A DNA stretch of 64,000 nt from an uncultured Sphingomonadaceae bacterium (GTDB lineage: Bacteria; Pseudomonadota; Alphaproteobacteria; Sphingomonadales; Sphingomonadaceae): contig CANMNF010000002.1 in NCBI GenBank assembly GCA_947499255.1, positions 942,430 through 1,006,429 on the forward strand, in the 5' to 3' direction. Under the pieces are notes generated by a model. That model was not told the DNA's origin and did not search any database. It saw nothing but the letters and a program-made list of their open reading frames with translations. How positions within the stretch are numbered: the stretch's first letter is position 1; each line of letters opens with the position of its first letter. A program made the position numbers and the translations under genes. Positions 25,908-42,623 of this stretch are shown one piece after another.

Positions 25908-25953
25908 GTTCGGAGATACTGCCTCCTTAGATTGAGTCGGAGTCTTACGCCTC

Positions 25954-25969
25954 GACACTGCAAAGTGTC
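25954..25969. repeat. Inverted repeat next to the bchF operator
   Basis: GACACT-GCAA-AGTGTC is a perfect 6-bp inverted repeat with a 4-nt spacer. It overlaps the first half of the PpsR-type site at 25966 and lies within the predicted bchF promoter spacer. Confidence 0.55.
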
Positions 25970-25983
25970 AATCTATCTTGACG
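25966..25983. promoter_or_regulatory. PpsR/CrtJ-type operator overlapping the bchF -35
   Basis: TGTCAATCTATCTTGACG: palindromic arms TGTCAA/TTGACG six bases apart, one base off TGT-N12-ACA. Read on the - strand, TTGACA (25971-25966) could be the -35 of bchF, with GTAAGA or TAAGAC 17-18 nt on as a weak -10. A weaker related site (CGACAA-N6-TTGACA) starts at about 25982. Shared by divergent ppaA. Confidence 0.7.
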
Positions 25984-26120
25984 ACAATCTAAATTGACAC
26001 AGGCGATTGCTATCTCATTGACACAAGGGTACGCTGCCAATCTGGCTGGAGTCGGATTTGATCCAAGGCGGCTCACCAGATCGACGCAATCTGCGCCGCA
26101 ACCAGACTGGGAGAGTCTGT

Positions 26121-27017
26121 ATGGCTTGGGTAATAGGAAAAAGCTTCGCTGAACTCAGCTGGGCGCAAATGATGCCAGCGATCCGCAAAAGAAGCGCATC
26201 GCCAAAGTCGCATCTGCGCGATGCACCAAAACCGCGAACAGCGGACCTTGATGAGTTGATTGAAGGCGAAATCATACCGCGCCTGATGATGGCGCACACA
26301 GCGGATGTTGTGACATTCCCGCGCGCTGGCAATTCTAAAGTATCGCGTGAAGAGGCGGAACGTTTTGCCGGATTGCCGCTCATCGCGGATTCATCTGAAT
26401 TGATGGAAGAAGTCGACATGATGTTGGCTCGCGGTGTTTGTGTTGAATCTATCTTGATCGATTTGCTGGCACCATCTGCGCGCAAATTGGGCAAGTGCTG
26501 GGAGGATGATGTTTGCGATTTTGTAGATGTCACCGTTGGTTTGACGCGGCTGCACGAAGTGTTGCGCGAAGTGGCTTCGAAGTCGCCCGGTTTGCTGGGG
26601 CAGGTGAACGGTCCGCGTTCTGCGCTGTTTTCGCCAATGCCAGGTGATCAACACAATTTCGGTACGCTTATGATAGAAGAGATCTTTAGCCGGGCTGGAT
26701 GGAATAGCAGTTTGCTTGTCGCACCGACCCGATCAGAACTATTGGACGAAGTTGCCAGCCAACCTTTCGATGTGATTGGATTGACGCTTAGCAATGATTG
26801 CTCTAGCCGCGCGCTTACAGGTCTGATCACTGCCATTCGTAGTGTGTCGGCTAATCCGCAAATTCAGGTTTTAATCGGTGGCCGCTCGGTCAACGCTAAC
26901 CCCCTGATAGCAGACGAAGTTGGTGCCGATGGCACCGCTGACAATGCGCAATCGGCACTTGTGCTGGCGGATCAATTGGTAATCGAATCGCAGCCACTTC
27001 TGGTCTCTGCGATCTAA
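26121..27017 (+). CDS. ppaA: Cobalamin-binding photosynthesis regulator PpaA/AerR
   Basis: 298 residues from ATG 26121 (GGGAGAG upstream; the frame opens at a TTG 63 nt earlier). The C-terminal half is a B12-binding domain with DQHNFG (176-181) matching the DxHxxG cobalamin motif, His178 being the expected cobalt ligand, then FDVIGLTLSND and IQVLIGGRSVN. AerR/PpaA proteins bind B12 and modulate the PpsR/CrtJ repressor in response to light and oxygen. The next gene is ppsR, 13 nt away. Confidence 0.92.
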   Translation: MAWVIGKSFAELSWAQMMPAIRKRSASPKSHLRDAPKPRTADLDELIEGEIIPRLMMAHTADVVTFPRAGNSKVSREEAERFAGLPLIADSSELMEEVDMMLARGVCVESILIDLLAPSARKLGKCWEDDVCDFVDVTVGLTRLHEVLREVASKSPGLLGQVNGPRSALFSPMPGDQHNFGTLMIEEIFSRAGWNSSLLVAPTRSELLDEVASQPFDVIGLTLSNDCSSRALTGLITAIRSVSANPQIQVLIGGRSVNANPLIADEVGADGTADNAQSALVLADQLVIESQPLLVSAI

Positions 27018-27030
27018 TTCGGAGAAGGGC

Positions 27031-28476
27031 GTGCTCACTCGAAAGCACTCGATTGAAGACAAGCGCCCGCTTTCGAACGCCAGCCATTTGCATGGCTGGC
27101 TGGGAGCGGATGGCGCAGCGCGTCTCGCCATGCTCGCCGGCGATATTACTTTGGTTGTCGATGGCAAAGGGCAGATCCTTGATGGTTCTGCCAATAGCGA
27201 TCAGTTTCCCGATTTGGATCAATGGATTGGTTCTGATTGGCTGGAAATCGTAACGGTGGAAAGCCGCCCTAAAGTGATGGAATTGCTTTCCGCTGCACGC
27301 AAAATGGGCCTGCAGCAATGGCGGCAAGTGAACCACCCTTCCGCCAATGGCGATATTCCCATCCGCTTTGCCCTGCTTGGCACCGCTGACAAGGATCGCT
27401 TTATTGCCGTGGGTCGCGATTTGCGCGAAGCAGCAGCTTTACAGCAACGTATTTTGCAGGCGCAGCAATCGCTCGAGCGTGATTATTCCAAACTGCGGCA
27501 AGTTGAAAAACGGTTCCGCATGTTGTTTGAACTCTCATCACAGCCAGTGCTGGTGGTTGAAGTGTCAAGCAATCGTATTCGCGAAGCCAATCCTGCGGCG
27601 CATCGGTTGTTGGGCGCGGGTGCTGGTTCCTTGGCGGGGAGCCGTCTGCCCAGCCTGTTTGCAAAAGATTCGCGTGACCGTGTCCTGGCCCATATCGGTT
27701 CGGCCATGTCGGCGCGCGGTGTCGCACCTGTGAAGGTGGAATTGGCAAAAGATGCAGGTGCCGCGCTGCTTTCAGCAACAGGTTTTGTACAACAAGGCGA
27801 GCAATATCTGCTGCTTCGCCTGAGTGATCCCGATGATGGCGATCCATCGCTGCGCGCGCCTACCGAAAGCATCGTTGCGCAAATGCCCGATGCAATGGTC
27901 ATCGCTGACCGTGATATGAATGTATGCAGCGCCAACCTCGCTTTTGTGGAATTGGTGCAGGCGGCCAGCGAAGATCAGCTGCGCGGCGTTCCGCTATCAA
28001 CATTCGTTGGCCGGCCCGGCATCGATCTGGAAGCGATTGCCAAGCAGATCGAATCCGATGGTTTTGCCCGCAATGTCAGCACCATTATTCGCGCAGATGA
28101 AAATGGCTTTGATGAGCCTGTCGAGCTTTCCGCTGTCCGCACCAGCGAGGAATCGCCACATTTTGGTTTCGTAATTCGCCCAGTGGGGCGCAGGATGCGC
28201 GATCTTCCGCCATCCAACGATGATTTGCCGCGTTCGGTTGAACAATTGACCGATCTTGTTGGCCGCATGTCATTGAAAGACATTGTGCGTGAAAGCACCG
28301 ATTTGATTGAGCGTTTGTGTATTGAAGCTGCGCTTTCTTACACCAAAGACAACCGCGCTTCTGCTGCCGAAATTCTCGGCCTTAGCCGTCAGAGCCTGTA
28401 TTCCAAACTTCACCGTTATGGACTGACAAGCAGAGCTGACGGCAATGGCGCAGCCGCCTCTGAAAAGAACGGCTGA
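27031..28476 (+). CDS. ppsR: Photosynthesis gene repressor PpsR/CrtJ
   Basis: 481 residues, GTG start with GGAGAAGGG upstream. Three PAS-like regions (about 35-130, 160-270 and 285-390), linked by a helical stretch rich in Gln/Arg (QQRILQAQQSLERDYSKL), and a C-terminal Fis-type helix-turn-helix (ASAAEILGLSRQSLYSKLHRYGL). Cys430, just before the helix-turn-helix (LIERLCIEAAL), corresponds to the redox-sensitive Cys of CrtJ/PpsR. The family binds TGT-N12-ACA palindromes and represses bch, crt and puc genes aerobically. Such sites are visible at several places in this cluster, including just after its own gene. Confidence 0.94.
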   Translation: MLTRKHSIEDKRPLSNASHLHGWLGADGAARLAMLAGDITLVVDGKGQILDGSANSDQFPDLDQWIGSDWLEIVTVESRPKVMELLSAARKMGLQQWRQVNHPSANGDIPIRFALLGTADKDRFIAVGRDLREAAALQQRILQAQQSLERDYSKLRQVEKRFRMLFELSSQPVLVVEVSSNRIREANPAAHRLLGAGAGSLAGSRLPSLFAKDSRDRVLAHIGSAMSARGVAPVKVELAKDAGAALLSATGFVQQGEQYLLLRLSDPDDGDPSLRAPTESIVAQMPDAMVIADRDMNVCSANLAFVELVQAASEDQLRGVPLSTFVGRPGIDLEAIAKQIESDGFARNVSTIIRADENGFDEPVELSAVRTSEESPHFGFVIRPVGRRMRDLPPSNDDLPRSVEQLTDLVGRMSLKDIVRESTDLIERLCIEAALSYTKDNRASAAEILGLSRQSLYSKLHRYGLTSRADGNGAAASEKNG

Positions 28477-28486
28477 CTCCAATAAC

Positions 28487-28504
28487 TGTCAAAAAGAATT
28501 GACG
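28487..28504. promoter_or_regulatory. PpsR/CrtJ-type operator and -35 of bchG
   Basis: TGTCAAAAAGAATTGACG has arms TGTCAA/TTGACG. TTGACG (28499-28504) can serve as -35 with TAGCGT (28522-28527) as -10 after exactly 17 nt. The bases after it, CTTTG, recur at the bchF and bchC sites. Confidence 0.68.
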
Positions 28505-28533
28505 CTTTGTCTTGTCAGGCATAGCGTCCTTCC

Positions 28534-29436
28534 ATGGTCAAAACGGTTGCCTCGACTCCGCCTGTGCCGCTTCCGGCGGTGCGCGATGTTGTAGAGCTGC
28601 TCAAACCTGTCACATGGTTCCCCCCGATGTGGGCCTTTATGTGCGGCGTGGTGTCGTCTGGCGTTGCAATTACGGAAAACTGGATTTTGCTTGTCGCTGG
28701 CATTGTGCTGGCCGGTCCGCTTGTTTGCGGGACCAGTCAGGCTGTAAATGATTGGTATGATCGCCATGTCGATGCGATCAATGAACCCAACCGTCCCATT
28801 CCCTCTGGCCGGATAGCAGGCAATTGGGGTTTGCGCATTGCGTTGATCGGCTCGCTGATTTCGCTGGGCGTTGGTGCGCTGATTGGACCTTGGGTGGTGG
28901 CCGCGACATTCGTGGCTTTGCTTTTGGCATGGGGTTACAGCGCGCCGCCATTTCGCTTCAAGACCAATGGCTGGCTTGGCCCCTTTGTGGTGGGTTTGAG
29001 CTATGAAGGGTTAAGCTGGTTTACAGGCGCCAGCGCCATGGCCGGAGCGCTGCCAGCTGGCACTATCCTGCTGGTGCTTGGTCTTTATAGTCTGGGCGCA
29101 CACGGCATCATGGTCCTCAATGATTTCAAGGCGGTGGAAGGTGACAAGGCAACAGGGCTCCGCTCTTTGCCGGTTACCCTTGGCGTGCGGCGTGCAGCAT
29201 TGGTGGCCTGTGCAACAATGGCGGTGCCGCAAATCGCTGTAATTGCGCTGCTGGGCCTTTGGGGGATGACGCTTAGTGCGATGGTTGTGGGCATTTTGAC
29301 AGCGGTGCAACTGGCTTTGATGCCGCGCTTGATCAGCGATCCGGCGCGCTTTGCACCTTGGTATAATGCAACAGGAGTGATGCTCTACGTGCTGGGCATG
29401 TTGGCCGCAGCACTGGGGCTTGGAGGGTATATCTGA
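28534..29436 (+). CDS. bchG: Bacteriochlorophyll synthase (geranylgeranyl/phytyl transferase)
   Basis: 300 residues. UbiA-type membrane prenyltransferase, about 8-9 helices, that esterifies bacteriochlorophyllide a. Signatures: ELLKPVTWFPPMWAFMCGVVSSG, prenyl-diphosphate motif NDWYDRHVDAINEPNRPIPSG and GAHGIMVLNDFKAVEGD. No Shine-Dalgarno sequence precedes the ATG, and the predicted transcription start falls at or next to it, so the message may be leaderless. Stop overlaps the next start (TGATG). Confidence 0.96.
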   Translation: MVKTVASTPPVPLPAVRDVVELLKPVTWFPPMWAFMCGVVSSGVAITENWILLVAGIVLAGPLVCGTSQAVNDWYDRHVDAINEPNRPIPSGRIAGNWGLRIALIGSLISLGVGALIGPWVVAATFVALLLAWGYSAPPFRFKTNGWLGPFVVGLSYEGLSWFTGASAMAGALPAGTILLVLGLYSLGAHGIMVLNDFKAVEGDKATGLRSLPVTLGVRRAALVACATMAVPQIAVIALLGLWGMTLSAMVVGILTAVQLALMPRLISDPARFAPWYNATGVMLYVLGMLAAALGLGGYI

Positions 29437-30788
29437 TGGCAGAAACGCTCGACGGACGGGGTCTGGCGCAAGAAAGTCAAACGGCAATAAGTGCAACCGG
29501 AATGGGTTGGCCAGGGATTGTCCGGTTGGGCTTTGTACAGGCGGCGATTGGCGCGATTGTCATGTTGACAACCAGCTTGCTCAACCGCGTGATGGTGGTG
29601 GAATATACGCTGGTTGCTGGTATTCCAGCGGGCCTTGTTGCGTGGCATTATGCCGTGCAGCTGACGCGGCCTTTCTGGGGCCATGGCTCTGACAAAGGAC
29701 GCGAACGCACGCCTTGGATACTTGGCGGCATGGCTTTGCTGGGGATGGGCGCGTTGATCGCGGTCAATGCCACTATTGTGATGGCCGATATGCGTGTGGC
29801 GGGTGGTTTGGTGGCCGTGTTGGGTTTCACCATGATCGGTGCAGGCGTTGGCGCAGCGGGCACTTCGATGCTGGCATTCCTCGCCTCCAGCGTTGCGCCT
29901 GAACGACGAGCGGCTGCCGCTGCGACGACATGGATCATGATGGTTGCAGGCATCGTGATTTCGGCAGGAATAGCGGGCGCAATGCTAGAACCCTTTACTC
30001 CGCAACGTCTTGCGGTTGTGTCCAGCGGCGTTGTTTTGACAGCTTTGGTTGTGACCTTTGTTGCGCTCTTTAAGCTTGAAGCAAACACTGCGCCTTTGCC
30101 TGTTGATCGGCGCAAAAACTTGCGTGATCTGCCCACCCCCAGCTTTGCCGATGCGCTGCGTGAAATATTGCACGAAGGCGCAGCGCGGCGCTTCACATTG
30201 TTCATCTTTGTCTCAATGCTTGCCTATTCGATGCAGGATTTGATCCTTGAGCCGTTTGCCGGTTTGGTGTTCGGAATGACGCCGGGGCAATCGACCCAAT
30301 TGGCGGGCATTCAACATGGCGGCGTGCTTGTCGGTATGATCTTGGCTGGCGTTGGCGGCAGCGCGTTTGCGGGCCGCAAGCTCACAGATTTGCGGCTGTG
30401 GATCGTGGTCGGATGCATTGGTTCGGGCATGGCACTGGCCGGATTGGCGATGGCCGCATCCAACGGCCTTGGCTGGCCGCTTGAAGCCAACGTCTTTGTG
30501 CTCGGCTTTTTCAATGGTGTCTTTGCAGTTTCTGCGATTGGCGCGATGATGGGTCTGGCAGGCGCAGGCGAACGGACGGGCGAAGGCGTGCGCATGGGCG
30601 TTTGGGGTGCCGCACAAGCGATAGCTTTTGGCCTTGGCGGGCTGCTTGGCGCGATAGGCGTGGATCTTGCCCGCCGCGCTCAGGAGCAGGATGCAGGTGC
30701 ATTCCAGCTTATCTTTGCGATTGAGGCAGTTTTGTTTGTGGTTGCGGCAGGGCTTGCCATTCATGCCGCTGCGAAGAATAAGGGATAG
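29436..30788 (+). CDS. PucC-family MFS protein between bchG and bchP
   Basis: 450 residues, about 12 helices. PucC-type N-terminal half (GWPGIVRLGFVQAAIGAIV, LLNRVMVVEYTLVAGIPAGL, RPFWGHGSDKGRERTPWILGG). Often called Bch2 or ORF428 in purple-bacterial clusters. Presumed to handle bacteriochlorophyll or antenna assembly, but its exact role is unproved. Paralogue of lhaA at 15889-17328, in the conserved G-(pucC)-P order. Confidence 0.88.
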   Translation: MAETLDGRGLAQESQTAISATGMGWPGIVRLGFVQAAIGAIVMLTTSLLNRVMVVEYTLVAGIPAGLVAWHYAVQLTRPFWGHGSDKGRERTPWILGGMALLGMGALIAVNATIVMADMRVAGGLVAVLGFTMIGAGVGAAGTSMLAFLASSVAPERRAAAAATTWIMMVAGIVISAGIAGAMLEPFTPQRLAVVSSGVVLTALVVTFVALFKLEANTAPLPVDRRKNLRDLPTPSFADALREILHEGAARRFTLFIFVSMLAYSMQDLILEPFAGLVFGMTPGQSTQLAGIQHGGVLVGMILAGVGGSAFAGRKLTDLRLWIVVGCIGSGMALAGLAMAASNGLGWPLEANVFVLGFFNGVFAVSAIGAMMGLAGAGERTGEGVRMGVWGAAQAIAFGLGGLLGAIGVDLARRAQEQDAGAFQLIFAIEAVLFVVAAGLAIHAAAKNKG

Positions 30789-30792
30789 TCCG

Positions 30793-31986
30793 ATGGATCT
30801 GGATATTTATGACGCAGTAGTGGTTGGCGGAGGTCCCGCAGGAGCCACCGCCGCATGTGATCTGGCCAATGCCGGCAGGCGCGTGATGCTGCTCGACCGG
30901 GATGGCCGGATCAAGCCGTGCGGCGGCGCTGTGCCGCCGCGCCTGTTGGAAGATTTCGATGTGCCGCAAAGCTTGCTGGTGGCGCGCGCACGCTCTGCCC
31001 GCATGATCGCGCCATCGGATCGCAAAGTCGATATGCCGGTGGGTGAAATCGGCTATGTCGGCATGGTTGATCGCGATGTTTTTGACGAATGGCTGCGGGT
31101 TCGTGCGCAAAATGCCGGTGCTGAACGCGTGACTGGCGTTTTTGAACGTATCGAGCGTGATGAAACAGGTTCAACTGTAGTTTATCGCCGTGGACGCGGA
31201 GCGCCCGAAGAGCGCATCTGTACCAAGCTGGTGATCGGAGCAGACGGCGCCCGTTCGGCAGTGGCCAAGCAGAACATTCCCGGCGCACAAAACATGAAAT
31301 GCGTTTTTGCCTATCACGAGATTATCAAATCACCTGCCGAAACCCCCGAAGGCTTTGGTGGCACGCGTTGCGACGTGTTTTATCAAGGTAAGCTTTCGCC
31401 CGATTTCTATGCCTGGGTCTTCCCTCATGGCGACACGGCCAGCATCGGCACAGGCAGCGCAGTTAAAGGTTTTTCCCTGCGCGAGGCGATCAAGGATCTG
31501 CGCAGCGATATGGGTCTTTCCGATTGCGAGACGATCCGCCGCGAAGGCGCGCCGTTGCCGCTCAAGCCGCTTAAATGCTGGGACAATGGCCGCGATGTGA
31601 TCCTTGCAGGCGATGCAGCGGGCGTGGTCGCGCCATCATCGGGTGAAGGCATTTATTACGCGATGACCGGCGGACGCCATGTGGCTGGGGCCGCCAATGT
31701 CTTCCTTGCTACTGGCGATGCAAAAGCGCTGGGCAAAGCGCGGGCTACTTTCATGAAAGAACATGGCAAGGTCTTCTGGATCCTCGGCATGATGCAACAT
31801 TTCTGGTATTCAAGCGATAAACGGCGGGAGCGGTTTGTGGCTATGTGTGCGGATAAGGATGTGCAGGAATTGACGTGGCAAGCCTATATGAACAAACGGC
31901 TGGTACGTGCCAAACCCCTGGCACATATCAAGATATTCTTGAAAGATTGTGCGCATTTGCTTGGTTTGAAACCGGTCGCTAGATGA
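30793..31986 (+). CDS. bchP: Geranylgeranyl reductase
   Basis: 397 residues from ATG 30793; an upstream in-frame start at 30667 lies inside the preceding gene and is rejected. FAD-dependent: dinucleotide motif VVVGGGPAGATAACDLA, then RIKPCGGAVPPRLLEDF, and GDAAGVVAPSSGEGIYYAM near residue 275. Reduces three double bonds of the geranylgeranyl tail to phytyl. Overlaps tspO by ATGA. Confidence 0.96.
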   Translation: MDLDIYDAVVVGGGPAGATAACDLANAGRRVMLLDRDGRIKPCGGAVPPRLLEDFDVPQSLLVARARSARMIAPSDRKVDMPVGEIGYVGMVDRDVFDEWLRVRAQNAGAERVTGVFERIERDETGSTVVYRRGRGAPEERICTKLVIGADGARSAVAKQNIPGAQNMKCVFAYHEIIKSPAETPEGFGGTRCDVFYQGKLSPDFYAWVFPHGDTASIGTGSAVKGFSLREAIKDLRSDMGLSDCETIRREGAPLPLKPLKCWDNGRDVILAGDAAGVVAPSSGEGIYYAMTGGRHVAGAANVFLATGDAKALGKARATFMKEHGKVFWILGMMQHFWYSSDKRRERFVAMCADKDVQELTWQAYMNKRLVRAKPLAHIKIFLKDCAHLLGLKPVAR

Positions 31987-32465
31987 GCCGTACCTGGGTT
32001 CTTCCCGTTATTATTGCCGCTTTGGCAGCTCTAGCGGTTGCAGCGCTCGGCGCGACAATCACCGATTTGGGGCCTTGGTATCAAACTCTGGCCAAGCCCG
32101 ATTGGACGCCGCCTGATCCAGCATTTGGTTTGGGTTGGACGGTGATTTTTACACTTACTGCAATGGCGGCGGTCACGGCATGGCGCGCTGCACCAACATC
32201 GCAGGTGAGCGATACGTTGATTGGCCTGTTCGCTTTCAACGCATTTCTCAATATCACCTGGAGCCTGCTCTTCTTCCGTATGCAGCGCCCGGACTGGGCC
32301 TTTGCCGAGCTGATGCTTTTATGGCTTTCGATCCTTGCGCTGATCATCGTATGCTCGCGCTATTCCAAGCTCGCCGGGCTTTTGCTGCTGCCATATCTTA
32401 TTTGGGTGAGCTTTGCCGGCACGCTCAATTGGCATGTGATCGAGCTTAACGGACCTTTCAACTGA
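31983..32465 (+). CDS. tspO: Tryptophan-rich sensory protein TspO/CrtK
   Basis: 160 residues, five membrane helices. Family signature WYQTLAKPDWTPPDPAFGLGWTVIFTL, Trp/Asn-rich NAFLNITWSLLFF, and a C-terminal YLIWVSFAGTLNW. Binds porphyrins, and in Rhodobacter it affects pigment gene expression in response to oxygen. Following bchP is a common place in AAP clusters. Confidence 0.94.
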   Translation: MSRTWVLPVIIAALAALAVAALGATITDLGPWYQTLAKPDWTPPDPAFGLGWTVIFTLTAMAAVTAWRAAPTSQVSDTLIGLFAFNAFLNITWSLLFFRMQRPDWAFAELMLLWLSILALIIVCSRYSKLAGLLLLPYLIWVSFAGTLNWHVIELNGPFN

Positions 32466-32471
32466 GCACCC

Positions 32472-32729
32472 ATGATGGAATGGCTTTTCGCCAGTGGCCA
32501 CGCGGTCGATATCGTTCTTGCCGTTTTGGCAATTGAAGCAATTTGGCTGCGCACCAAAGGACGCAGCGCAATGGACATCGCGTTGCTCATGCTGCCTGCT
32601 GTCGCAATCCTGCTGGCTTTGCGGGCTGCGCTTGTTGGGGCGGACTGGCCGTGGATCGCGGTGCCGCTTGCGCTGTCTTTCCCGGTTCATCTTGCTGATC
32701 TTAAATCACGGTTTGGCAAACGCGATTGA
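32472..32729 (+). CDS. Small membrane protein at the end of the ppaA-tspO block, function unknown
   Basis: 85 residues, three hydrophobic helices (about 10-27, 36-52, 60-75), ending with the charged tail DLKSRFGKRD. Starts 7 nt after tspO, with a GAGCACCC leader but no strong ribosome-binding site, so probably translationally coupled. No family name recognised. Presence in the block suggests a pigment or membrane-assembly role (inference). Confidence 0.75.
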   Translation: MMEWLFASGHAVDIVLAVLAIEAIWLRTKGRSAMDIALLMLPAVAILLALRAALVGADWPWIAVPLALSFPVHLADLKSRFGKRD

Positions 32730-32745
32730 TACATCACCCAAATGA

Positions 32746-32785
32746 ACAATCGCCCGGCCAAGCGATGGCTTAGCCGGACGATTGT
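32746..32785. terminator. Terminator-like hairpin between convergent blocks
   Basis: The stem ACAATCGCCCGGC / GCCGGACGATTGT (one mismatch) encloses a second 4-bp stem AAGC/GCTT. It sits between the small membrane gene and pufC, which converge. No strong T-tract, so it may act mainly as a 3'-end stabiliser. Confidence 0.55.
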
Positions 32786-32810
32786 CCCGATCCCGAATTT
32801 TTGAGGGGGT

Positions 32811-33890
32811 TTAACTCGCGGCTGCGATCTCCACAGCCGCGGCATCCTCATCATCCGCCTCATCCAGGATTGGTGCGGTGAAATCCAGCGGTTCACGCAA
32901 AAGTGCAGGATAATCTGCCACCATGCTCACCCCGCCCATTGGCTTGTTTTGTCCCTGATGACAGGTGCCGCACTGAACCTTAAACGGATCGCCTTCAGCG
33001 CCAAGGCGGTTTTCCGGGAAAATCCCTGCCAGCGGCGAGATGTAGCCATCGTTGACATCGCGAACCATTTGCACGCCGTGCCACGCCTGCACACGGGCGG
33101 GGCCACTGATCGACCAGTCAGCAAAGTTTTGCGAGTTGTGGCAATGCACACAGTTCACACCCAGCGATTCGGAGAAATGCATCATCAAACCATAGGTCTG
33201 CTCTGCTTCCATCGTGGTGACTTCGTGGTCCTCTTGCGGATGCATGGAGACCCCGCTGACGCGAACGCTCATCGGTTCGCCAAGATCACTGCCAAAGTAT
33301 GAGCCGAAGCTCTCATATGGCAAAGAACTGAACGCAGAAGCTGGAACCGGCATATTCTGCCCGTTCACCTTACGCTCAATCGGATTGCCCGAAGGAGCAC
33401 CTGCCAGCGTGTAATAATTTTCCGGCACCGGATTGCCGCGGTGGCAGGTCCAGCACGTGACGCCGGTATCTTTTACATGGCTGTCCCAGCTGATGTTCAC
33501 CTTCTGGTTCATCTGGATCATGCTGCGTGCAACAGCTTTGGTATAGACCTCATCGGAAGCCATATTCGCCGGGTTGTGGCAATAATTACAGCCTTCTTCG
33601 GGCGAAACCCACTCCGTAATCGCGGCCATGAAGTAATCAAATTCTTCACGGCTGATATTGGAGAGAACTTGCACGTTTTCATACGCTTCCCCGGCGGTCA
33701 CTTCGCCGGGAGGAGGCAGATCATAAGGCGGCGCGGGCACTTCGGCCACGATCGCAGCGCTATCGAGATTGACCTGAGCCATGCCCGTCCCGCGATAGCC
33801 TGATTGCTCCAGCGTCTTTGGTCCCGGCTCACAAGCGACAAGCGCCAATGCCGCCGCCGCGACGCCAGTGAGAGCTAGTGCCTTATGCAT
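32811..33890 (-). CDS. pufC: Reaction centre tetraheme cytochrome c subunit
   Basis: 359 residues. Lipoprotein signal with lipobox ALALVAC (Cys20). Four heme motifs: CNYCH (101), CWTCH (146), CVHCH (247) and CGTCH (307), paired as usual. It donates electrons to the oxidised special pair. A short acidic C-terminal tail (DEADDEDAAAVEI) extends past the usual end. The ATG shares a base with the pufM stop. Presence of PufC rules out the PufX/soluble-only arrangement of Rhodobacter. Confidence 0.97.
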   Translation of the reverse strand: MHKALALTGVAAAALALVACEPGPKTLEQSGYRGTGMAQVNLDSAAIVAEVPAPPYDLPPPGEVTAGEAYENVQVLSNISREEFDYFMAAITEWVSPEEGCNYCHNPANMASDEVYTKAVARSMIQMNQKVNISWDSHVKDTGVTCWTCHRGNPVPENYYTLAGAPSGNPIERKVNGQNMPVPASAFSSLPYESFGSYFGSDLGEPMSVRVSGVSMHPQEDHEVTTMEAEQTYGLMMHFSESLGVNCVHCHNSQNFADWSISGPARVQAWHGVQMVRDVNDGYISPLAGIFPENRLGAEGDPFKVQCGTCHQGQNKPMGGVSMVADYPALLREPLDFTAPILDEADDEDAAAVEIAAAS

Positions 33891-34867: not shown

Positions 34868-34878
34868 ACGCTTACTCC

Positions 34879-35700: not shown

Positions 35701-35756
35701 AGCCCATTCCTTCCCCAGGCATATCCCGGGTAGCTTAGTGTTTATCCTCGACCGGT

Positions 35757-35788
35757 GAGGTGCCGGTGGCAGCGCCAGCCGGCACCTC
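35757..35788 (-). other. pufA-pufL intercistronic hairpin (mRNA stabiliser)
   Basis: GAGGTGCCGG / CCGGCACCTC, 10 bp, extended by TGGC/GCCA around a 3-nt loop with one bulged base. No T-tract, so read-through into pufLMC is expected. Comparable hairpins in Rhodobacter protect the 5' pufBA message and raise LH1 over RC levels; the same role is inferred here. Confidence 0.75.
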
Positions 35789-35827
35789 TCGCACAGTCGA
35801 ATGGTTCAGGTCGTGTTGACCGTTATC

Positions 35828-36016
35828 CTACGGCGTTGCTGCAGCTGCAGCAGCCGAACCCAATTGCGCCGTTGCGGCAGCATTAGGGCCATCCAGCCAA
35901 TTGTACGTATCTGTACTCAGCAAGATGAAGTGGATGGTGAAAGCCAGCACCGCCAAAAAGACGTGCAGGCCAACCAGGGCAGTGCGCGGATTGAAAGTCA
36001 TCCAAGCTCTCCACAT
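35828..36016 (-). CDS. pufA: Light-harvesting complex 1 alpha polypeptide
   Basis: 62 residues, one membrane helix. MWRAWMTFNPRTALVGLHVF start and the bacteriochlorophyll-ligating His in FTIHFILLSTDTYNWL are both canonical. The C-terminal tail after NWLDG is unusually Ala-rich (AAATAQ...AAAAAATP). Lies 47 nt after pufB. Confidence 0.96.
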   Translation of the reverse strand: MWRAWMTFNPRTALVGLHVFLAVLAFTIHFILLSTDTYNWLDGPNAAATAQLGSAAAAAATP

Positions 36017-36063
36017 GGTATTTCTCCTTAATTAAGTTGAAAAATCAGCGTCTTGTTTCGGGA

Positions 36064-36222
36064 TTACCCGATCCAGGGACGCCACATCCACACCAACAGG
36101 TGCGCCACGACCGCGATGCCCGTGAAGCCCATGAAGGTGGTCATGAACAGCTTGTGGAATTCCTTTGCCTCTTCAGGCGAAAGGTAAGTCCTCACGCCGA
36201 AGCGATCATCTGGCTCACTCAT
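36064..36222 (-). CDS. pufB: Light-harvesting complex 1 beta polypeptide
   Basis: 52 residues from ATG 36222, preceded by GAGAAAAGC; a longer frame to 36441 runs back into bchZ and is rejected. Canonical beta sequence: LSPEEAKEFHKLFMTTFMGF, one helix, ligand His in VVAHLLVWMWRPW. First puf gene. No pufQ between bchZ and pufB. Confidence 0.96.
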   Translation of the reverse strand: MSEPDDRFGVRTYLSPEEAKEFHKLFMTTFMGFTGIAVVAHLLVWMWRPWIG

Positions 36223-36251
36223 AGCTTTTCTCCAGTTTCGGTTATTGTGCG

Positions 36252-36332
36252 AGAGGCACCATGCCTCTGACGATATCCTCGCATTGGGCCGAAGCCTGGT
36301 GCAGGGATGGGGTGGCTTGCCACCGGGCAAGC
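36252..36332 (-). other. bchZ-pufB intergenic hairpins
   Basis: Two short perfect stem-loops: AGAGGCA-CCA-TGCCTCT (36252-36268) and GCTTGCC-ACCG-GGCAAGC (36315-36332). They lie in the leader of pufB and could mark the 3' end of the bch message, a processing site, or structure in the puf leader. No T-tract follows, so not a classical terminator. Confidence 0.5.
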
Positions 36333-36349
36333 GATCTGTGTGGGCGCGA

Positions 36350-37795
36350 TCATGCGCCGGAACCTTCGAGCAATGCGTCAGCCAATCGTTCAGCATTAAC
36401 ACGCGTGTCGCCTGCACGCCGCGCTGCTCTTTCAGCAGCATCGCGCAGACGTTTGGCGACGGAAATTCTCAAGAGCACCGGTTGTGCTTCGACCAGTTCA
36501 TCGAGCTTGGCCTTGGCATCATCATCCCAGGGCAATTCCCGTTCGATGCGCGCAGGCGTTGCTTCGGCCTCATCCATTTGCGTACCAAGCGGCAGGATAT
36601 GGAACAGCGCGTCAAACAACGCATTGCACACTTCTTGCACCAGATAGGTCGCGCCCGAATAGCCCATAAAAGGCGTGCCGGTATGGCGCCGAATAGCGGC
36701 ACCGGGGAAGCTGGCCGGAATGTAAATGCCGCGTCCGCCGCATTCGGCCATATACATGCGCTCATTATATGAACCGAACAGCACCAGAGGCGGGTTCTCG
36801 TGGATCTTGGCGCGCACGGTTTGGTTGTCCGGCTTGACACCAGCTGAGCGGCCAAAGCTGAACGCGCAGGGCAGGCCCATATCACCTTCGAGGAAATTCT
36901 TTAGGCCGCGCGCATATGTCTCATTCGCGACCACGCCGAAATTGGCGGTGCCGAAGAAATCTTGCGTGACGGAACGCCACAGATCCCACAGCGGTTTGAT
37001 CGTGGTGTGCTTTTCACGCTCGATAAACGGTTCTGGATCAAGGCCCAGCTCTTCGCCCAGTGCGCGCAGGAATTTGGTGGTGGATGTAAGACCAACAGGC
37101 GCCTGAAAATAAGGACGTTCCAGCAGCTCGCACAGATTGCGGCCATATTCGCGGTACATGCAGATATTGGCATCAGCCTGCGCCAATTTCCTGACATCGG
37201 CGAGATGCGTGCCAAGCGGGAAGGAGAGGTTCAGTTCTGCCCCGATCCCTTCGACCAGACGCTGGATTTCCGCCAGATCGCTGGCCATGTTGAACATGCC
37301 ATAGGCCGGGCCGATAATGTTGACGCGCGGCTTTTCACCTTCTTTGCGTTCCCGCAATTTGGGCATTTTCTTGGGGCCAAATTCGGTCCAAATCCAGCTT
37401 AAGGCGCGGTCTGCCGATTCCCACTGATCTTCATCAATGGTGCGCGGCAGGAAACGTTTGATCGTGGTGCCTTCAGGTGTAACCCCGCCCCCGATCATCT
37501 CTGAGATGGAGCCGGTCACGACGACCGACGGAAGTTCTGGATCAAGCGTTTCCCAAGCGCGCTTCATGGCCGCTTCGGTGCCGGTTTTGCCCAGCTCCTC
37601 TTCGCCCAAACCGGTCACTACGACTGGCAATTCATGCGGAGGCAGGCCGTCTGTGTAATGCAGCACTGATGTCACGGGCAGATTTTCACAACCTACCGGG
37701 CCATCGATAACAACCTGCAATCCCTTCACTGCGGTGAAGGCGTAAACTGCGCCCCAATATCCGCCGGCGCGATCATGATCGATAACGAAGGTCAT
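36350..37795 (-). CDS. bchZ: Chlorophyllide a reductase subunit Z
   Basis: 481 residues; ATGA overlap with bchY. NifK-like catalytic half of chlorophyllide reductase, which reduces ring B to make the bacteriochlorin. Landmarks: [35 protein letters not shown] (cluster-ligand Cys) and [23 protein letters not shown] near residue 390. C-terminal reductase tail [20 protein letters not shown]. Confidence 0.97.
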
Positions 37796-39336
37796 GAGCC
37801 GACCGCCTCGCTCGCTTTGCGCGCAGCAATGGTTTGGGCAGCAAATTTCTTCTTGAATTTGGGGCGATCCATCGGGGTATCGCTCCAGATCCCGGCGCTA
37901 TCGCCTTGGCCTACACCTTCAAAGAAATCGCGCATCTTATCAAAGCGGTCTTTGTTGCCCATCGCGGCATTGATGACTTGCGCCAAGCTGCCAGCACCTG
38001 CCGGACCCATCAAAGGACGCGCAGAGATGAGGTTAGTGAAATACAGCGCGGGCGTTCCGGCCTGTTTGGCGTGTTGCACAACTGGCGTCGTGCCAATGGC
38101 AAGGTCTGGGCCGAACTCTTCTACTGCGGCGATATCTTGCTCAAGGCTGGCGCGGTAATTTACCCGGCATCCTTTGGCCTCCAGCCATTCACGATCGGGA
38201 TCGGACCACGGCGTTTGCGGACACGCGGTGCCGACATAAGGCACATCCGCACCGCTTTCGATCAATAAGCGCGCGACCAGAAGTTCAGACCCTTCATAAC
38301 CAGAAACGGTCACCCGGCCTTTGATAGGCATGGCTGCAAGCGCACCTTTAATGGCGGGAAGGAAGGCGTTTTTCGCTGCGTCAATGCGTTCTTGCGCGAC
38401 CCCGCAAGCAGCACCAATGCCATCAAGCCAAGCTGCCGTGCCATCAACGCCCACCGGGGCAGAGCCGACAATCGAACGGCCAGCGGTTTCAAATTCGCGC
38501 ACGCTGGCGGTGTAAAATGGGTGGATCGCGGCAACAGTTGCGCAGTCCAATGCACTGTAAAGTTCACGCCATTCGCGTGTGGGAACGACCGGTCCGACCG
38601 ACAAGCCCAGCGGATCGAGCATTTGCCCGATGCCAACAGGGTCTGCTGGGAACATCTCACCAAGGAGTGTCACCGTGGGCCGGTCCGGCCGTTCCTTTGG
38701 CGCTGCAACAGGACCGGTTTCGGCCTCATTGCGTGCATAGGCCAGCATAGCGCCGGCCAAGACATCCTTAGCCTCGGCATGGGTCGGGATCCCGAAGCCA
38801 GGGACGTCTATTCCTACGATGCGCACGCCATTGATCTGATCTGGCAGCAGCCGCAAAGGCACGCCGGATGCAGTGGGTACGCAAAGGTTGGTGACAATGA
38901 TTGCGTCGTAATTTTCAGGATCGGCCAAATCTTCGACCGCTTCCTTGATATCTTCAAACAGCTTGCCGGTAACCAGCGTTTCAGAGCTGAAAGGAACATA
39001 GCCAACGGTGCGGCGCGCGCCGTAAAAATGCGACGTAAAGGTCAGCCCGTAAACGCAGCAGGCAGAGCCTGAAAGCACCGTTGCTGTGCGCCGCATCCGC
39101 AGGCCAACGCGCAGCGAGCCAAAAGCTGGGCACATGCTTTGCGGTTGATCATGCGGACCAACGGGATAGTCCGCCTCATATTGATCCAAGATATCACTTT
39201 TGCCTGCGTCACGCGCAGCTTGTTTGAGCGTGTCCTTGCTTGAACACGCGCCGCCACTGTCGCTGTTTGCAGCAGCGTCTGTGCCCAGATCAATGCGATC
39301 AGGCGTCCGCTCATCAGAGGCGATCAGATCAGTCAA
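37792..39336 (-). CDS. bchY: Chlorophyllide a reductase subunit Y
   Basis: 514 residues. NifD-like partner of BchZ. Cluster-region cysteines in [20 protein letters not shown] and [17 protein letters not shown], then [17 protein letters not shown] Ser/Ala/Asp-rich N-terminal ~35 residues precede the conserved part. Three nt after bchX. Confidence 0.97.
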
Positions 39337-39339
39337 AGA

Positions 39340-40338
39340 TCAGACCTCATCATACACCACCTCAAGGCTGGGCTTGGGTTCGAAAGAACCGCCGCGCATA
39401 TCGGCTTGTGTTGCAGGAACCAGCTGCACATTGCCGCCTGTATCTTCCGGGCTGAACAGATTGAGCAGGCCATCCTGATCCAGCGGTGAAGGCTGTTTGG
39501 GCGGTGCACTCGCGACATTGCTGGCGAGCTCTTCAAACAGGCCGCCCCATTCGCTGTCAGGTGTGCCGATGATTTGATAATTGGCCGATTTGCGGCGGAT
39601 ATCTTCATTGGCAGGGATCGCGCACAGCACAGGGATGTCGACAGCTTTGGCAAATGCTTGCGCTTCGCCCGTGCCATCATCCTTGTTCACGATCATGCCG
39701 GCAACGCCGACATTGCCGCCCATCTTGCGGAAATATTCCACCGCATGACAAACGTTGTTCGCCACATAAAGCGATTGCAGATCGTTTGATCCAACAACAA
39801 TCACCTTCTGGCACATGTCCCGCGCAATCGGCAAACCAAACCCGCCGCACACCACATCACCAAGGAAATCGAGCAGGACGTAATCAAAGCCCCATTCATG
39901 AAAGCCCAGCTTTTCCAGCAGCTCAAACCCGTGAATGATCCCGCGACCACCACAGCCACGGCCCACTTCCGGGCCGCCCAATTCCATCGCAAAAACGCCA
40001 TCACGCTGGAAGCACACATCTTCGATGGTAACTTCTTCGCCAGCAGCTTTCTTCTTGGAGGATGTCTCGATAATCGTGGGGCAGGACTTGCCGCCGAACA
40101 GCAGGCTGGTCGTATCCGATTTGGGATCACAACCGATCAGCAGGACGCGTTTGCCCTGTTGCGCCATCATGTAAGACAAATTGGACAGTGCAAAACTTTT
40201 GCCCGAACCACCTTTGCCATAAATCGCGATAACTTGTGTTTCAGACGTCACTTCGCCTGTGTGCACAGGGTCCGGCTCTTGCGCGGCTTCATCGCGCAAG
40301 GCCTGATCATTGGCGGATTGGGGATCAAGCATACTCAT
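39340..40338 (-). CDS. bchX: Chlorophyllide a reductase iron protein
   Basis: 332 residues. NifH-like: P-loop YGKGGSGKSFALSN, bridging cluster cysteines in GGPEVGRGCGGRGI and [12 protein letters not shown]. About 35 residues longer at the N-terminus than BchL, as usual for BchX. Transfers electrons to BchYZ with ATP hydrolysis. ATGA overlap with bchC. Confidence 0.97.
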   Translation of the reverse strand: MSMLDPQSANDQALRDEAAQEPDPVHTGEVTSETQVIAIYGKGGSGKSFALSNLSYMMAQQGKRVLLIGCDPKSDTTSLLFGGKSCPTIIETSSKKKAAGEEVTIEDVCFQRDGVFAMELGGPEVGRGCGGRGIIHGFELLEKLGFHEWGFDYVLLDFLGDVVCGGFGLPIARDMCQKVIVVGSNDLQSLYVANNVCHAVEYFRKMGGNVGVAGMIVNKDDGTGEAQAFAKAVDIPVLCAIPANEDIRRKSANYQIIGTPDSEWGGLFEELASNVASAPPKQPSPLDQDGLLNLFSPEDTGGNVQLVPATQADMRGGSFEPKPSLEVVYDEV

Positions 40339-41270
40339 TCAGCGTCACTCCAATCGAGAACCATTTTGAGGCAATCCGGCTCTAGGAATGCAGCTGGATA
40401 GGCGCTGGACGCCTCTTCAGCAGGCCGGATATGCGTGACGAGGCCATCGAGATTGAGGGCGCCATCGTCGATAAGCTTGCGTGTCGCAGCCAGATCTTCT
40501 GGCTGCCATTCTGCGGCAACGCGCAGGCGCGCTTCTGCTTGAAAAGCTTGCGGAAAAGCGAAGCTGAGGCGGTTGGCGTAAAAGCCCCCCAGAACGATCT
40601 CGCCATTGCGTGCAAGACGCCCGATCAATTGATCCAGCACATCGGCATTGCCGCTAACATCGATCACACAATTGTAATCCTGACGATCATCGTCCTTTGG
40701 CGCGATGACATCATATCCCACATTGCCAGTGCGCCGTTCAGCCTTGTTATCCCATACGATAGGAGCCGGCCCGCCGCGTGCGACCGCTATGCGTGCAAGC
40801 AATCTGCCGAGCACACCGTGGCCAACAATCAGTTCAGGCGCATCGCCGCTGGCAAGGATATGCATCGCAGTGGCGGCAAGGGCGCAAAGCGTGCCAGCTT
40901 CAGCCAGCGACTCGGAAACAGGAAGGGCGCGTGCAGATGGAATGACCAGCCGGTTGGCGGTGCCACCAAACAGGCCACGCGCTTCTTTATAACAGCTTGC
41001 GCCCGGCACGAAGACCCACTCGCCAATACGCTCCGCCACATCGGGCGCGGCATCTACGATGCGGCCTACGCTCTCATAACCAGGAACTAGCGGGTAACCC
41101 ATGCCCGGAAACCGCGGCATTTCGCCGGTCCACAGCAGTTTTTCGGTTCCTGCGGAGACACCGGAGAATTTCGTTTCGACAAGGACGTCGCCGGGGCCTG
41201 GCGCAACCAATTCGAGCGACCGCAGCGCCAAGCGCCGTGGTGCATCAAGTATGACTGCCATTGCCTCCAT
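40335..41270 (-). CDS. bchC: 3-hydroxyethyl-bacteriochlorophyllide a dehydrogenase
   Basis: 311 residues from ATG 41270 (AAGGGG upstream; the frame opens one codon earlier at TTG). Medium-chain dehydrogenase fold: ETKFSGVSAGTEKLLWTGEMP, PLVPGYESVGRI and nucleotide-binding VGHGVLGRLLARIAV. Oxidises the 3-hydroxyethyl group made by BchF to 3-acetyl. First gene of bchCXYZ-puf, with a PpsR-type site about 90 nt upstream. Confidence 0.95.
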   Translation of the reverse strand: MEAMAVILDAPRRLALRSLELVAPGPGDVLVETKFSGVSAGTEKLLWTGEMPRFPGMGYPLVPGYESVGRIVDAAPDVAERIGEWVFVPGASCYKEARGLFGGTANRLVIPSARALPVSESLAEAGTLCALAATAMHILASGDAPELIVGHGVLGRLLARIAVARGGPAPIVWDNKAERRTGNVGYDVIAPKDDDRQDYNCVIDVSGNADVLDQLIGRLARNGEIVLGGFYANRLSFAFPQAFQAEARLRVAAEWQPEDLAATRKLIDDGALNLDGLVTHIRPAEEASSAYPAAFLEPDCLKMVLDWSDAE

Positions 41271-41361
41271 CAACTATGCCCCTTTCGCGTTCCTCAAACC
41301 TCAGCACACTCTTCACAAAGGTGTGTCTGCCCGTTTGTCTTCCTAGACTAACAGCACAAAG

Positions 41362-41379
41362 TGTCAATGCAAATGGACA
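41362..41379. promoter_or_regulatory. PpsR/CrtJ operator upstream of bchC
   Basis: TGTCAATGCAAATGGACA is an exact TGT-N12-ACA site. On the - strand its downstream half is TTGACA, a -35, followed by CTTTG and, 16 nt on, TAGGAA as a possible -10. Predicted start is about 60 nt before the bchC ATG. Confidence 0.82.
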
Positions 41380-41388
41380 ATAATGTTG

Positions 41389-42573
41389 TCAGGCGCGCGC
41401 GACGATAATGCTGGCGACAAGCGGCTGACGGGTGGTGATTTGCCGGGTAGAAGCGAAGCCTGCGCGCTCAAGCATTGCAGTGATCTGCGCTGCACTACGC
41501 GGCCTGCCCGAGCGCATGGCCCATAGATACAGCCCGAAATAGGCATCCCCCATGCCTTTCGCGCCTGCCGTCTCAGCCATCGGTTCAGCGATAAGAAGGC
41601 GCGCGCCGGGGGCGAGCGCCTTGTGGATATTGCCCAGCAGTTTTTGCGCCGGTGCGTCATCATGATCGTGGAGAATGCGCACCAAGCTGATCAAATCGTA
41701 GCCCTTGGGCAGCGATTCTTCGAAGAAGTCACCGCCAAATGTCGCGACTCGGGCGCGGTGCGGCGCAAGGTGCGCGGTCTCCACCGCCTGCGCGGCCACT
41801 TGCGGCAGATCATATAAGCCCAGTTTTAACCGCGCATGTCTGTTCGCCACAGCACCTAGAAACGCACCGTGCCCGCCTCCTATATCGAGCAGCTTGACGT
41901 GTTTGGAAAAATCGTAGGCGGGCAAAACCTGTTCTGCGACAAGATGTTGAGAAGCGGCCATAAGTTCAGAATAAGCCCGCGCTTTTTCAGGATCGCGGCT
42001 ACGCTCTTCCGGCGTCCCGGCATAGGTCCAAAACTGCGACAAAGCCGTGGGCGTTTGCCGATCATCGTGCAGCAGAGCCAGTGGATCGGCAAGGTCTGTA
42101 TAAAGCAATTTGTGATGGCGGATCATCGCCTGCGCGCCGTGATTGGAGTGCAATGCCGCGCCTTGTTCGCCCAGCATCCACCAGCCCGGAGCCACCTCCT
42201 CGGCCAGATCGATGGCGGTTGCCGCACGCACCAGCCGCAAGGCGGCATCCTTTGACAATTGCGCGGCGTGGCCAATGGAAGCTGCGTCCGCCGGGCCGCG
42301 TTCTAACAGATCAAGCAACCCGCTCTCCACAAAGGCCAGCAGCGTTTGCGTATATGTAAAGCCTGCCAGCAAATCGAAAAGCTGGCGCGCGCGGCCTCTG
42401 GCGGCAGGGCGCGTGAAAGGCACAATGGTCATCCATCGTTGAAAGCCAGGTTTGCGCAAAAGCCGATTGCGCCAACCGACCCAGCGCACCTTCAAATTCC
42501 AACCCCAACCCTTGGGCCAATTCCTCGGCGAACCCTCTTCTGCGCCTATGCCCAATTGTTTGTCCTCACCCAT
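41389..42573 (-). CDS. crtF: Hydroxyneurosporene/demethylspheroidene O-methyltransferase
   Basis: 394 residues. Methylates the tertiary hydroxyl added by CrtC. Dimerisation-type helices at the N-terminus (RARQLFDLLAGFTYTQTLLAF), SAM motif KLLDIGGGHGAFLGAV near residue 230, and the LVRILHDHDDAPAQKLL region typical of plant-type O-methyltransferases. No Shine-Dalgarno sequence, and the predicted transcription start lies at the ATG. Read in the same direction as bchC, 118 nt upstream of it. Confidence 0.93.
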   Translation of the reverse strand: MGEDKQLGIGAEEGSPRNWPKGWGWNLKVRWVGWRNRLLRKPGFQRWMTIVPFTRPAARGRARQLFDLLAGFTYTQTLLAFVESGLLDLLERGPADAASIGHAAQLSKDAALRLVRAATAIDLAEEVAPGWWMLGEQGAALHSNHGAQAMIRHHKLLYTDLADPLALLHDDRQTPTALSQFWTYAGTPEERSRDPEKARAYSELMAASQHLVAEQVLPAYDFSKHVKLLDIGGGHGAFLGAVANRHARLKLGLYDLPQVAAQAVETAHLAPHRARVATFGGDFFEESLPKGYDLISLVRILHDHDDAPAQKLLGNIHKALAPGARLLIAEPMAETAGAKGMGDAYFGLYLWAMRSGRPRSAAQITAMLERAGFASTRQITTRQPLVASIIVARA

Positions 42574-42574
42574 A

Positions 42575-42592
42575 TGTCCAATTTACTGGACA
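42575..42592. promoter_or_regulatory. PpsR/CrtJ operator between crtF and crtD
   Basis: TGTCCAATTTACTGGACA: exact TGT-N12-ACA with fully symmetrical arms TGTCCA/TGGACA. It begins 2 nt from the crtF ATG, covering its predicted -10/start region, and TGGACA may be the -35 for crtD. Confidence 0.85.
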
Positions 42593-42605
42593 CAAGTGGT
42601 GTAAA

Positions 42606-42623
42606 CGTCAAATATATATGACG
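42606..42623. promoter_or_regulatory. Second PpsR-like palindrome, crtF/crtD
   Basis: CGTCAAATATATATGACG: same 18-bp geometry, outer T/A changed to C/G. Its - strand TTGACG could be the crtF -35, 17 nt from CAGTAA. Centre-to-centre distance to the first site is 31 bp (about three helical turns), compatible with cooperative binding. Confidence 0.6.

What the first reader, a model, noticed from the sequence alone, without database searches (positions are those of the whole stretch)
25966..42623. PpsR operators whose half-site doubles as the -35 element, with a shared CTTTG extension
In three promoters (bchF, bchG, bchC) an 18-bp palindrome of TGT-N12-ACA type is placed so that its downstream half reads TTGACA or TTGACG in the direction of transcription, followed directly by CTTTG and a weak -10 about 16-18 nt on. 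crtF has the same layout with TTTAC. PpsR/CrtJ sites are known; the constant fusion of site, -35 and CTTTG would mean that repressor and sigma factor compete for the same bases.
Basis: partly seen in the sequence, partly recalled or inferred. Interest (0 to 1): 0.55.

Follow-up and report, generated by a model that had tools for sequence, protein, structure and literature searches.

The report
PpsR repressor sites overlapping bacteriochlorophyll promoters
The repeated motif is the known oxygen/light repressor (PpsR) site sitting on the promoter's -35 box, which is ordinary; less familiar is that one of these promoters carries two such sites fused end to end at a spacing that is nearly constant among related bacteria.

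Summary
The three CTTTG sites are real. In bchF, bchG and bchC the downstream half of a PpsR-type palindrome reads TTGAC(A/G) and CTTTG follows. Half-site/-35 overlap, hence repressor-polymerase competition, is published for Rhodobacter capsulatus bchC (PMC5362033) and Dinoroseobacter shibae bchF (PMC10890935).

"Constant CTTTG" fails: of 77 related genomes, TTGAC(A/G)CTTTG lies upstream of bchC in 1, bchF in 8, bchG in 4; only the window genome shares it in all three. What is conserved is a (C)TT lean on the outer flank of PpsR palindromes, also away from the -35; R. sphaeroides ChIP-seq motif strings already often end in CT. The crtF site has no CTTTG and no -10 at 16-18 nt.

Beyond the finding, spacing is promoter-specific. 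bchC: two palindromes 26 bp apart (65 of 77 genomes, 31 of 32 genera), the known geometry. bchF: two palindromes 16 bp apart, overlapping by CG (68 of 77; 31 of 32 genera; shuffles 0.1), also in other Alpha-, Beta- and Gammaproteobacteria but in 0 of 13 Rhodobacterales loci. bchG looks leaderless (63 of 68). Binding and transcription starts were not testable.

The parts
25966..25983 (-). bchF proximal PpsR-type palindrome CGTCAAGATAGATTGACA; its last six bases (25971-25966) are the proposed -35 TTGACA
   Evidence: sequence; score 15.0, tied second best of the window
25982..25999 (-). bchF second palindrome TGTCAATTTAGATTGTCG, 16 bp upstream, overlapping the first by CG (25982-25983)
   Evidence: score 13.0; offset 16 in 68 of 77 related genomes
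25961..25965 (-). CTTTG at bchF; CTT read as outer flank of the operator
25942..25947 (-). proposed bchF -10 TAAGAC, 18 nt from the -35
   Evidence: sequence; column conservation at this place in relatives; start not mapped
26007..26035 (+). proposed divergent ppaA promoter TTGCTA-17-TACGCT, outside the PpsR palindromes
   Evidence: sequence; read by eye in the relatives listed, not tested statistically
26058..27017 (+). ppaA/aerR-like gene with B12-binding domain
   Evidence: PF02310 32.5 bits, cut-off 32.1; name from domain and position
27031..28476 (+). ppsR
   Evidence: TIGR02040 389 bits, cut-off 275; PAS and HTH_8
28487..28504 (+). bchG PpsR-type palindrome TGTCAAAAAGAATTGACG; -35 TTGACG 28499-28504
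   Evidence: sequence; score 15.0
28505..28509 (+). CTTTG at bchG
28513..28527 (+). TGTC half-site relic (28513-28516) and proposed -10 TAGCGT (28522-28527, spacer 17); bchG ATG at 28534, 6 nt after the -10
   Evidence: sequence
41362..41379 (-). bchC upper palindrome TGTCCATTTGCATTGACA; -35 TTGACA 41367-41362
   Evidence: sequence; best score of the window, 15.5
41357..41361 (-). CTTTG at bchC, first five bases of the 8-bp linker
41336..41353 (-). bchC lower palindrome TGTTAGTCTAGGAAGACA, 26 bp from the upper, covering the proposed -10 TAGGAA (41345-41340, spacer 16)
   Evidence: offset 26 in 65 of 77 relatives
   Evidence: score 13.0
42575..42592 (.). palindrome TGTCCAATTTACTGGACA in the crtF/crtD gap, 31 bp from the other; on the plus strand its TGGACA could be the crtD -35 with AAATAT (42610-42615) 17 nt on
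   Evidence: offset 31 is rare in relatives (2 genomes)

Best explanation
These are sigma70-type promoters of the photosynthesis cluster of a sphingomonad-type aerobic phototroph, with PpsR operators built onto the core promoter. The downstream half of an 18-bp PpsR palindrome is the -35 box, so bound PpsR and RNA polymerase exclude each other (the known mechanism). The CTT of CTTTG is mainly the outer flank of an extended operator, roughly AA-s-TGTCAA-N6-TTGACA-s-TT (s = C or G), and the following TG is chance. Each promoter keeps its own geometry: bchC two palindromes 26 bp apart, the lower over the -10 (spacer 16); bchG one full palindrome plus at most a relic half-site (spacer 17, probably leaderless mRNA); bchF two palindromes 16 bp apart overlapping by 2 bp (spacer 18). 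16 and 26 bp are about 1.5 and 2.5 helical turns, so two dimers would stand in the same angular relation. Shown here: sequences, conservation, spacing. Inferred: PpsR binding in this organism, competition, transcription starts, two dimers on the fused site, and TT as a protein contact or shape feature.
For: ppsR lies between the sites. Published geometry of R. capsulatus bchC, upper palindrome -47 to -30 and lower -21 to -4, equals the window's bchC. D. shibae bchF: half-site mutations derepress and sites overlap -10 and -35. Half-site asymmetry. Fixed spacers to TAnnnT: bchC 16 in 38 of 75 (33 without one), bchF 18 in 44 of 73 (19 without), bchG 17 in 57 of 68 (3 without). Outer-flank T is the commonest base at +2 and +3 of all eight flanks tabulated; for the six flanks re-tested, T at +2/+3 is 0.51-0.73 against 0.21-0.30 further out in the same DNA. 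Offsets 26 at bchC (65 of 77) and 16 at bchF (68 of 77) against 0.1 in shuffles.
Against: No binding or start data for this organism. C at +1 is strong only beside the bchF and bchG -35 (0.77, 0.79) and weak beside bchC (0.15), which the flank account does not explain. TAnnnT is missing at the stated place in 33 of 75 bchC and 19 of 73 bchF sites, and that count tried the expected spacer first. The bchC upper site was chosen with a score that also rewards a lower palindrome at an 8-9 bp linker; the offset counts do not use that choice. Nine of 77 genomes lack offset 16 at bchF.
Confidence: 0.8

Rival explanations
1. CTTTG, or CTT, is an extended -35 or spacer element read by RNA polymerase or a third factor and shared by these promoters.
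For: C at +1 is 0.77-0.79 beside the bchF and bchG -35; agreement of the first five linker bases between promoters of one genome exceeds permutation, 0.382 against 0.332 per site, 0 of 2000; three-way identity in the window genome.
Against: The pentamer is in 1 of 75, 8 of 73 and 4 of 68 sites. TT also flanks the far sides of the palindromes and both sides of the lower bchC palindrome, where there is no -35. The agreement test is also raised for stretches outside the linker (U7-12, 7 of 2000; upstream, 12 of 2000), so shared composition can explain part of it. C is not preferred at bchC.
Confidence: 0.15
2. The upstream palindrome at bchF serves the divergent ppaA gene; the 16-bp fusion is crowding of two independent sites in a short gap, not a cooperative double operator.
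For: It lies between the divergent genes; in the eight Rhodobacterales plasmid loci two strong palindromes stand 95-144 bp apart, one on each side.
Against: Offset 16 is exact in 31 of 32 genera, and in Thiodictyon, where the divergent gene is ppsR, the pair lies 175-191 bp from the bchF ATG in a 424-bp gap, so it is not forced by crowding. The ppaA promoter seems to use TTGC.. further out (by eye).
Confidence: 0.25
3. The conserved palindromes reflect common descent of the cluster or another regulator reading TTGACGTCAA, not PpsR.
Against: Core positions stay while the inner N6 and flanks vary across 32 genera; in Chromatiaceae and Rhizobium loci the fused centre varies as PpsR half-site variants (TTTACGTAAA, ATACGTCAA); the same motif is the R. 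sphaeroides PpsR ChIP-seq motif.
Confidence: 0.05

Closest known systems
CrtJ-repressed bchC promoter of Rhodobacter capsulatus (PMC5362033; passages seen)
   Same: Two TGTN12ACA palindromes, 8-bp linker, upper over the -35 and lower over the -10; identical to the window's bchC and to most relatives.
   Different: Nothing essential at bchC; the fused 16-bp pair of bchF is not described in the passages seen.
PpsR-repressed bchF promoter of Dinoroseobacter shibae (PMC10890935; passages seen)
   Same: Sites over -10 and -35 of bchF, competition with sigma70 stated, half-site mutations derepress; four potential sites in the bchF-ppaA gap.
   Different: By the mutated positions given there the two functional sites are not fused; the window has a fused pair and no full lower site over the -10.
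R. sphaeroides PpsR ChIP-seq motif (PMC4344238, table 2; passages seen)
   Same: 20-nt strings with C at position 19 in 13 of 19 and T at 20 in 11 of 19 (three of the 19 strings are identical): the same CT flank.
   Different: bchF and ppaA are each given one separate motif; no fused pair listed.
Rubrivivax gelatinosus pucB/crtI PpsR sites (PMC4452267; abstract and passages seen)
   Same: Tandem sites with short linkers over the promoter; spacing (8 or 9 bp) changes cooperativity and redox response.
   Different: Linkers of 8-9 bp, not a 2-bp overlap; other promoters.

Membership tests
PpsR/CrtJ operator | TGTN12ACA-type palindrome (extended TGTC-N10-GACA) | tested here: met
   bchC upper and lower exact; bchF and bchG with C for T at one end
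PpsR/CrtJ operator | PpsR encoded in the same genome | tested here: met
   27031-28476, TIGR02040 above cut-off, PAS and HTH_8
PpsR/CrtJ operator | conserved at orthologous promoters | tested here: met
   75, 73 and 68 of 77 genomes at bchC, bchF, bchG
PpsR/CrtJ operator | binding by the PpsR protein | not testable with these tools
   no experiment
bchC-type tandem operator (R. capsulatus) | two palindromes with 8-bp linker (26 bp apart) over -35 and -10 | tested here: met
   window bchC; 65 of 77 genomes
bchC-type tandem operator (R. capsulatus) | same geometry at bchF and bchG | tested here: not met
   bchF has offset 16; exact lower TGTN12ACA in 0 of 73 bchF and 4 of 68 bchG sites
sigma70-type promoter | -35 and -10 with 16-18 nt spacer | tested here: inconclusive
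   conserved hexamers at bchG, weaker at bchF and bchC; starts not mapped
   1 of 75, 8 of 73, 4 of 68; absent at crtF

The most novel reading that the evidence does not exclude
bchF is controlled by a fused 34-bp double PpsR operator: two palindromes overlapping by CG, locked at 16 bp (one helical turn less than the 26 bp of bchC), the outer end serving as the -35. It is nearly universal in the phototrophic sphingomonads sampled and frequent in other Alpha-, Beta- and Gammaproteobacteria, but was found in none of 13 Rhodobacterales loci, the order of R. capsulatus, R. sphaeroides and D. shibae. Promoter-specific operator spacing would set how strongly and how redox-dependently each operon is repressed.
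Probability: 0.6. Interest if true: 0.5.

Novelty: new variant of a known kind. Interest (0 to 1): 0.38.

Why it matters
Repressor-on-the--35 is established for PpsR/CrtJ. The added value is a comparative record showing that each bacteriochlorophyll promoter keeps its own operator spacing nearly to the base, with a fused double site at bchF that the Rhodobacterales loci examined lack. If functional, rules of PpsR cooperativity drawn from Rhodobacter do not carry over simply to many other phototrophic proteobacteria, and operator spacing becomes a testable dial for redox and light control.

Tried and rejected
Constant CTTTG: rejected by counts. CTT as a general -35 extension: the genome-wide TTGACR-N16-18-TANNNT pattern gave 17 matches against 44 and 38 for the reversed control, so it says little. 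An rRNA-promoter control was abandoned: only 6 of 30 genomes returned an SSU match and I did not examine their promoters. ppaA using the mirror half-site as its -35: set aside by eye, because TTGCC../TAG..T recurs further out. My first attempt to anchor bchF on the most downstream palindrome took the most upstream one through a sorting error (second part); corrected. Notebook slips: it says 9 of 77 bchF genomes with the exact string; one search shows 8. No description of overlapping PpsR palindromes at bchF appeared in the searches in the held open-access library; subscription papers, figures and supplements were not seen, so this is not proof of novelty. L250 (titled as an acidobacterial MAG) has the fused pair and may be misbinned; it is counted among the 29 of 47.

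Full report
What is there. Between bchF and ppsR lies a gene with a B12-binding domain, ppaA/aerR by domain and position. The window is therefore taken to be from a sphingomonad-type aerobic phototroph; the species is not known to me.

Observation. The three palindrome-plus-CTTTG strings are exact. The plain TGTN12ACA pattern is not enriched (11 against 8.83 expected), nor is the number of 18-mers scoring 12.5 or more clearly above shuffles (18 against 17, 7, 7, 13, 10). TTGACRCTTTG occurs six times in the genome, three times here.

What lies beside it. At bchC the CTTTG begins an 8-bp linker to a second exact TGTN12ACA palindrome (41336-41353) covering the proposed -10. This is the geometry mapped at R. 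capsulatus bchC, upper -47 to -30 and lower -21 to -4 (PMC5362033, passages). At bchF the site overlaps a second palindrome 16 bp upstream (25982-25999). At bchG only a TGTC relic follows.

Relatives. 397 genomes of the family, drawn evenly from a larger group, were searched for BchC; 77 pass the cut-off, and all 77 have BchF and BchG. 154 stretches were taken. Palindromes passing my score were found at 75 (bchC), 73 (bchF) and 68 (bchG) of 77; the remaining 2, 4 and 9 were dropped from column counts. For bchC the choice also rewarded a lower palindrome at an 8-9 bp linker. Genus-weighted columns show TTGAC(A/G) close to invariant on the promoter side and looser on the far side; the raw counts are 63 of 75, 61 of 73, 66 of 68 against 17, 37, 37. 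Part of the bchF shortfall comes from an overlapping palindrome chosen by the score. Spacers to a TAnnnT hexamer, trying the expected one first, are 16 in 38 of 75 (bchC; 33 without any), 18 in 44 of 73 (bchF; 19 without) and 17 in 57 of 68 (bchG; 3 without).

CTTTG. The exact string lies upstream of bchC, bchF and bchG in 1, 8 and 4 of 77 genomes. Linker columns 1-3 are C .15/.72/.79, T .55/.68/.57, T .36/.71/.49 at bchC/bchF/bchG, weaker after that (T at 4.23/.38/.43; G at 5.32/.39/.33). Only the window genome shares a pentamer at all three (1 of 64 genomes with all three sites; 0.0076 expected by permutation), a rarity noted after the fact. Agreement between promoters of one genome is above permutation for linker bases 1-5 (0 of 2000) but also for the palindrome core and upstream DNA (7 and 12 of 2000), not for linker bases 6-8. 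Reading flanks outward, T is the commonest base at +2 and +3 at all eight flanks tabulated, among them both sides of the lower bchC palindrome and the far sides of the others, against 0.22 and 0.20 at 2226 control palindromes in the neighbouring, mostly coding DNA. As coding DNA is a poor match in composition I compared positions further out in the same DNA: T at +2/+3 is 0.51-0.73 and at +4 outward 0.21-0.30 for the six flanks tested. I conclude that TT belongs to the operator's outer flank. C at +1 is strong only beside the bchF and bchG -35 and stays unexplained. The R. sphaeroides ChIP-seq strings already reach two bases beyond the palindrome, with C in 13 of 19 and T in 11 of 19.

Spacing. 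Over the 154 stretches the distance between strong palindromes peaks at 26 (74 pairs, 27 genera), 16 (67 pairs, 29 genera) and 25 (30 pairs, 11 genera); 28 and 44 have 11 each and no other offset up to 70 exceeds 8. Per promoter at a lower threshold, 26 occurs at bchC in 65 of 77 genomes and 31 of 32 genera (25 in 20 genomes, 51 in 18, 52 in 16), 16 at bchF in 68 of 77 and 31 of 32, each against 0.1 in shuffles; at bchG 26 occurs in 15 of 77. Among 80 named BchF loci, the best matches to a sphingomonad alignment and so no random sample, 59 have offset 16: 30 of 33 that I classed as sphingomonad-type and 29 of 47 others, including Rhizobium, Brevundimonas, Hyphomicrobium, Rhodoferax and Thiocystis; the 18 others without it include Rhodoblastus, Rhodopila, Methylorubrum, Rhodoplanes and several Comamonadaceae besides Rhodobacterales. 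The five Rhodobacterales loci of that set (L224, L229, L256, L275, L277; order assigned from the record titles by recall) and all eight on plasmids lack it; in the plasmid loci two strong sites stand 95-144 bp apart. Thiodictyon and Novosphingobium plasmids have it. The shared CG explains why the window's proximal bchF site starts with C.

Mechanism. D. shibae: motifs overlap -10 and -35, 'thereby preventing RNA polymerase binding', and half-site mutations derepress (PMC10890935, passages). Spacing alters cooperativity and redox response in Rubrivivax (PMC4452267, abstract and passages). I infer the same kind of control here; 16 and 26 bp are about 1.5 and 2.5 helical turns (own arithmetic). 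Binding, starts and cooperativity in this organism are untested.

bchG start. In 63 of 68 genomes (30 of 31 genera) the first ATG lies 5-8 nt after the proposed -10; in the window 28534 is the first start codon of its frame and lies 6 nt after it. The mRNA is then probably leaderless or nearly so.

Verdict. The fused bchF operator and the fixed spacing classes are the part worth keeping.

Noticed in passing
28522-28536: bchG ATG lies 6 nt after the proposed -10; in 63 of 68 related genomes the first ATG is 5-8 nt after it, so the bchG mRNA is probably leaderless.
   Followed up: partly
41387-41404: A third PpsR-like palindrome (score 12.5) 25 bp upstream of the bchC upper site, at the end of the crtF frame; offset 25 occurs in 20 of 77 relatives and offsets 51-52 in 18 and 16. 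It may partly reflect the TGA stop codon.
   Followed up: no
26007-26035: Proposed ppaA promoter TTGCTA-17-TACGCT next to the bchF operator; relatives show TTGCC.. and TAG..T there, without a PpsR half-site on the -35 (by eye).
   Followed up: partly
42575-42623: crtF/crtD gap has two PpsR-like palindromes 31 bp apart; on the plus strand they could cover a crtD -35 (TGGACA) and -10 (AAATAT). This offset is rare in relatives (2 genomes).
   Followed up: partly
L250: A metagenome bin titled as Candidatus Sulfopaludibacter carries bchF with the proteobacterial fused operator; it may be misbinned.
   Followed up: no
811-828: A strong PpsR-like palindrome (score 15.0) inside the ORF at 5-2176; likely chance.
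   Followed up: no
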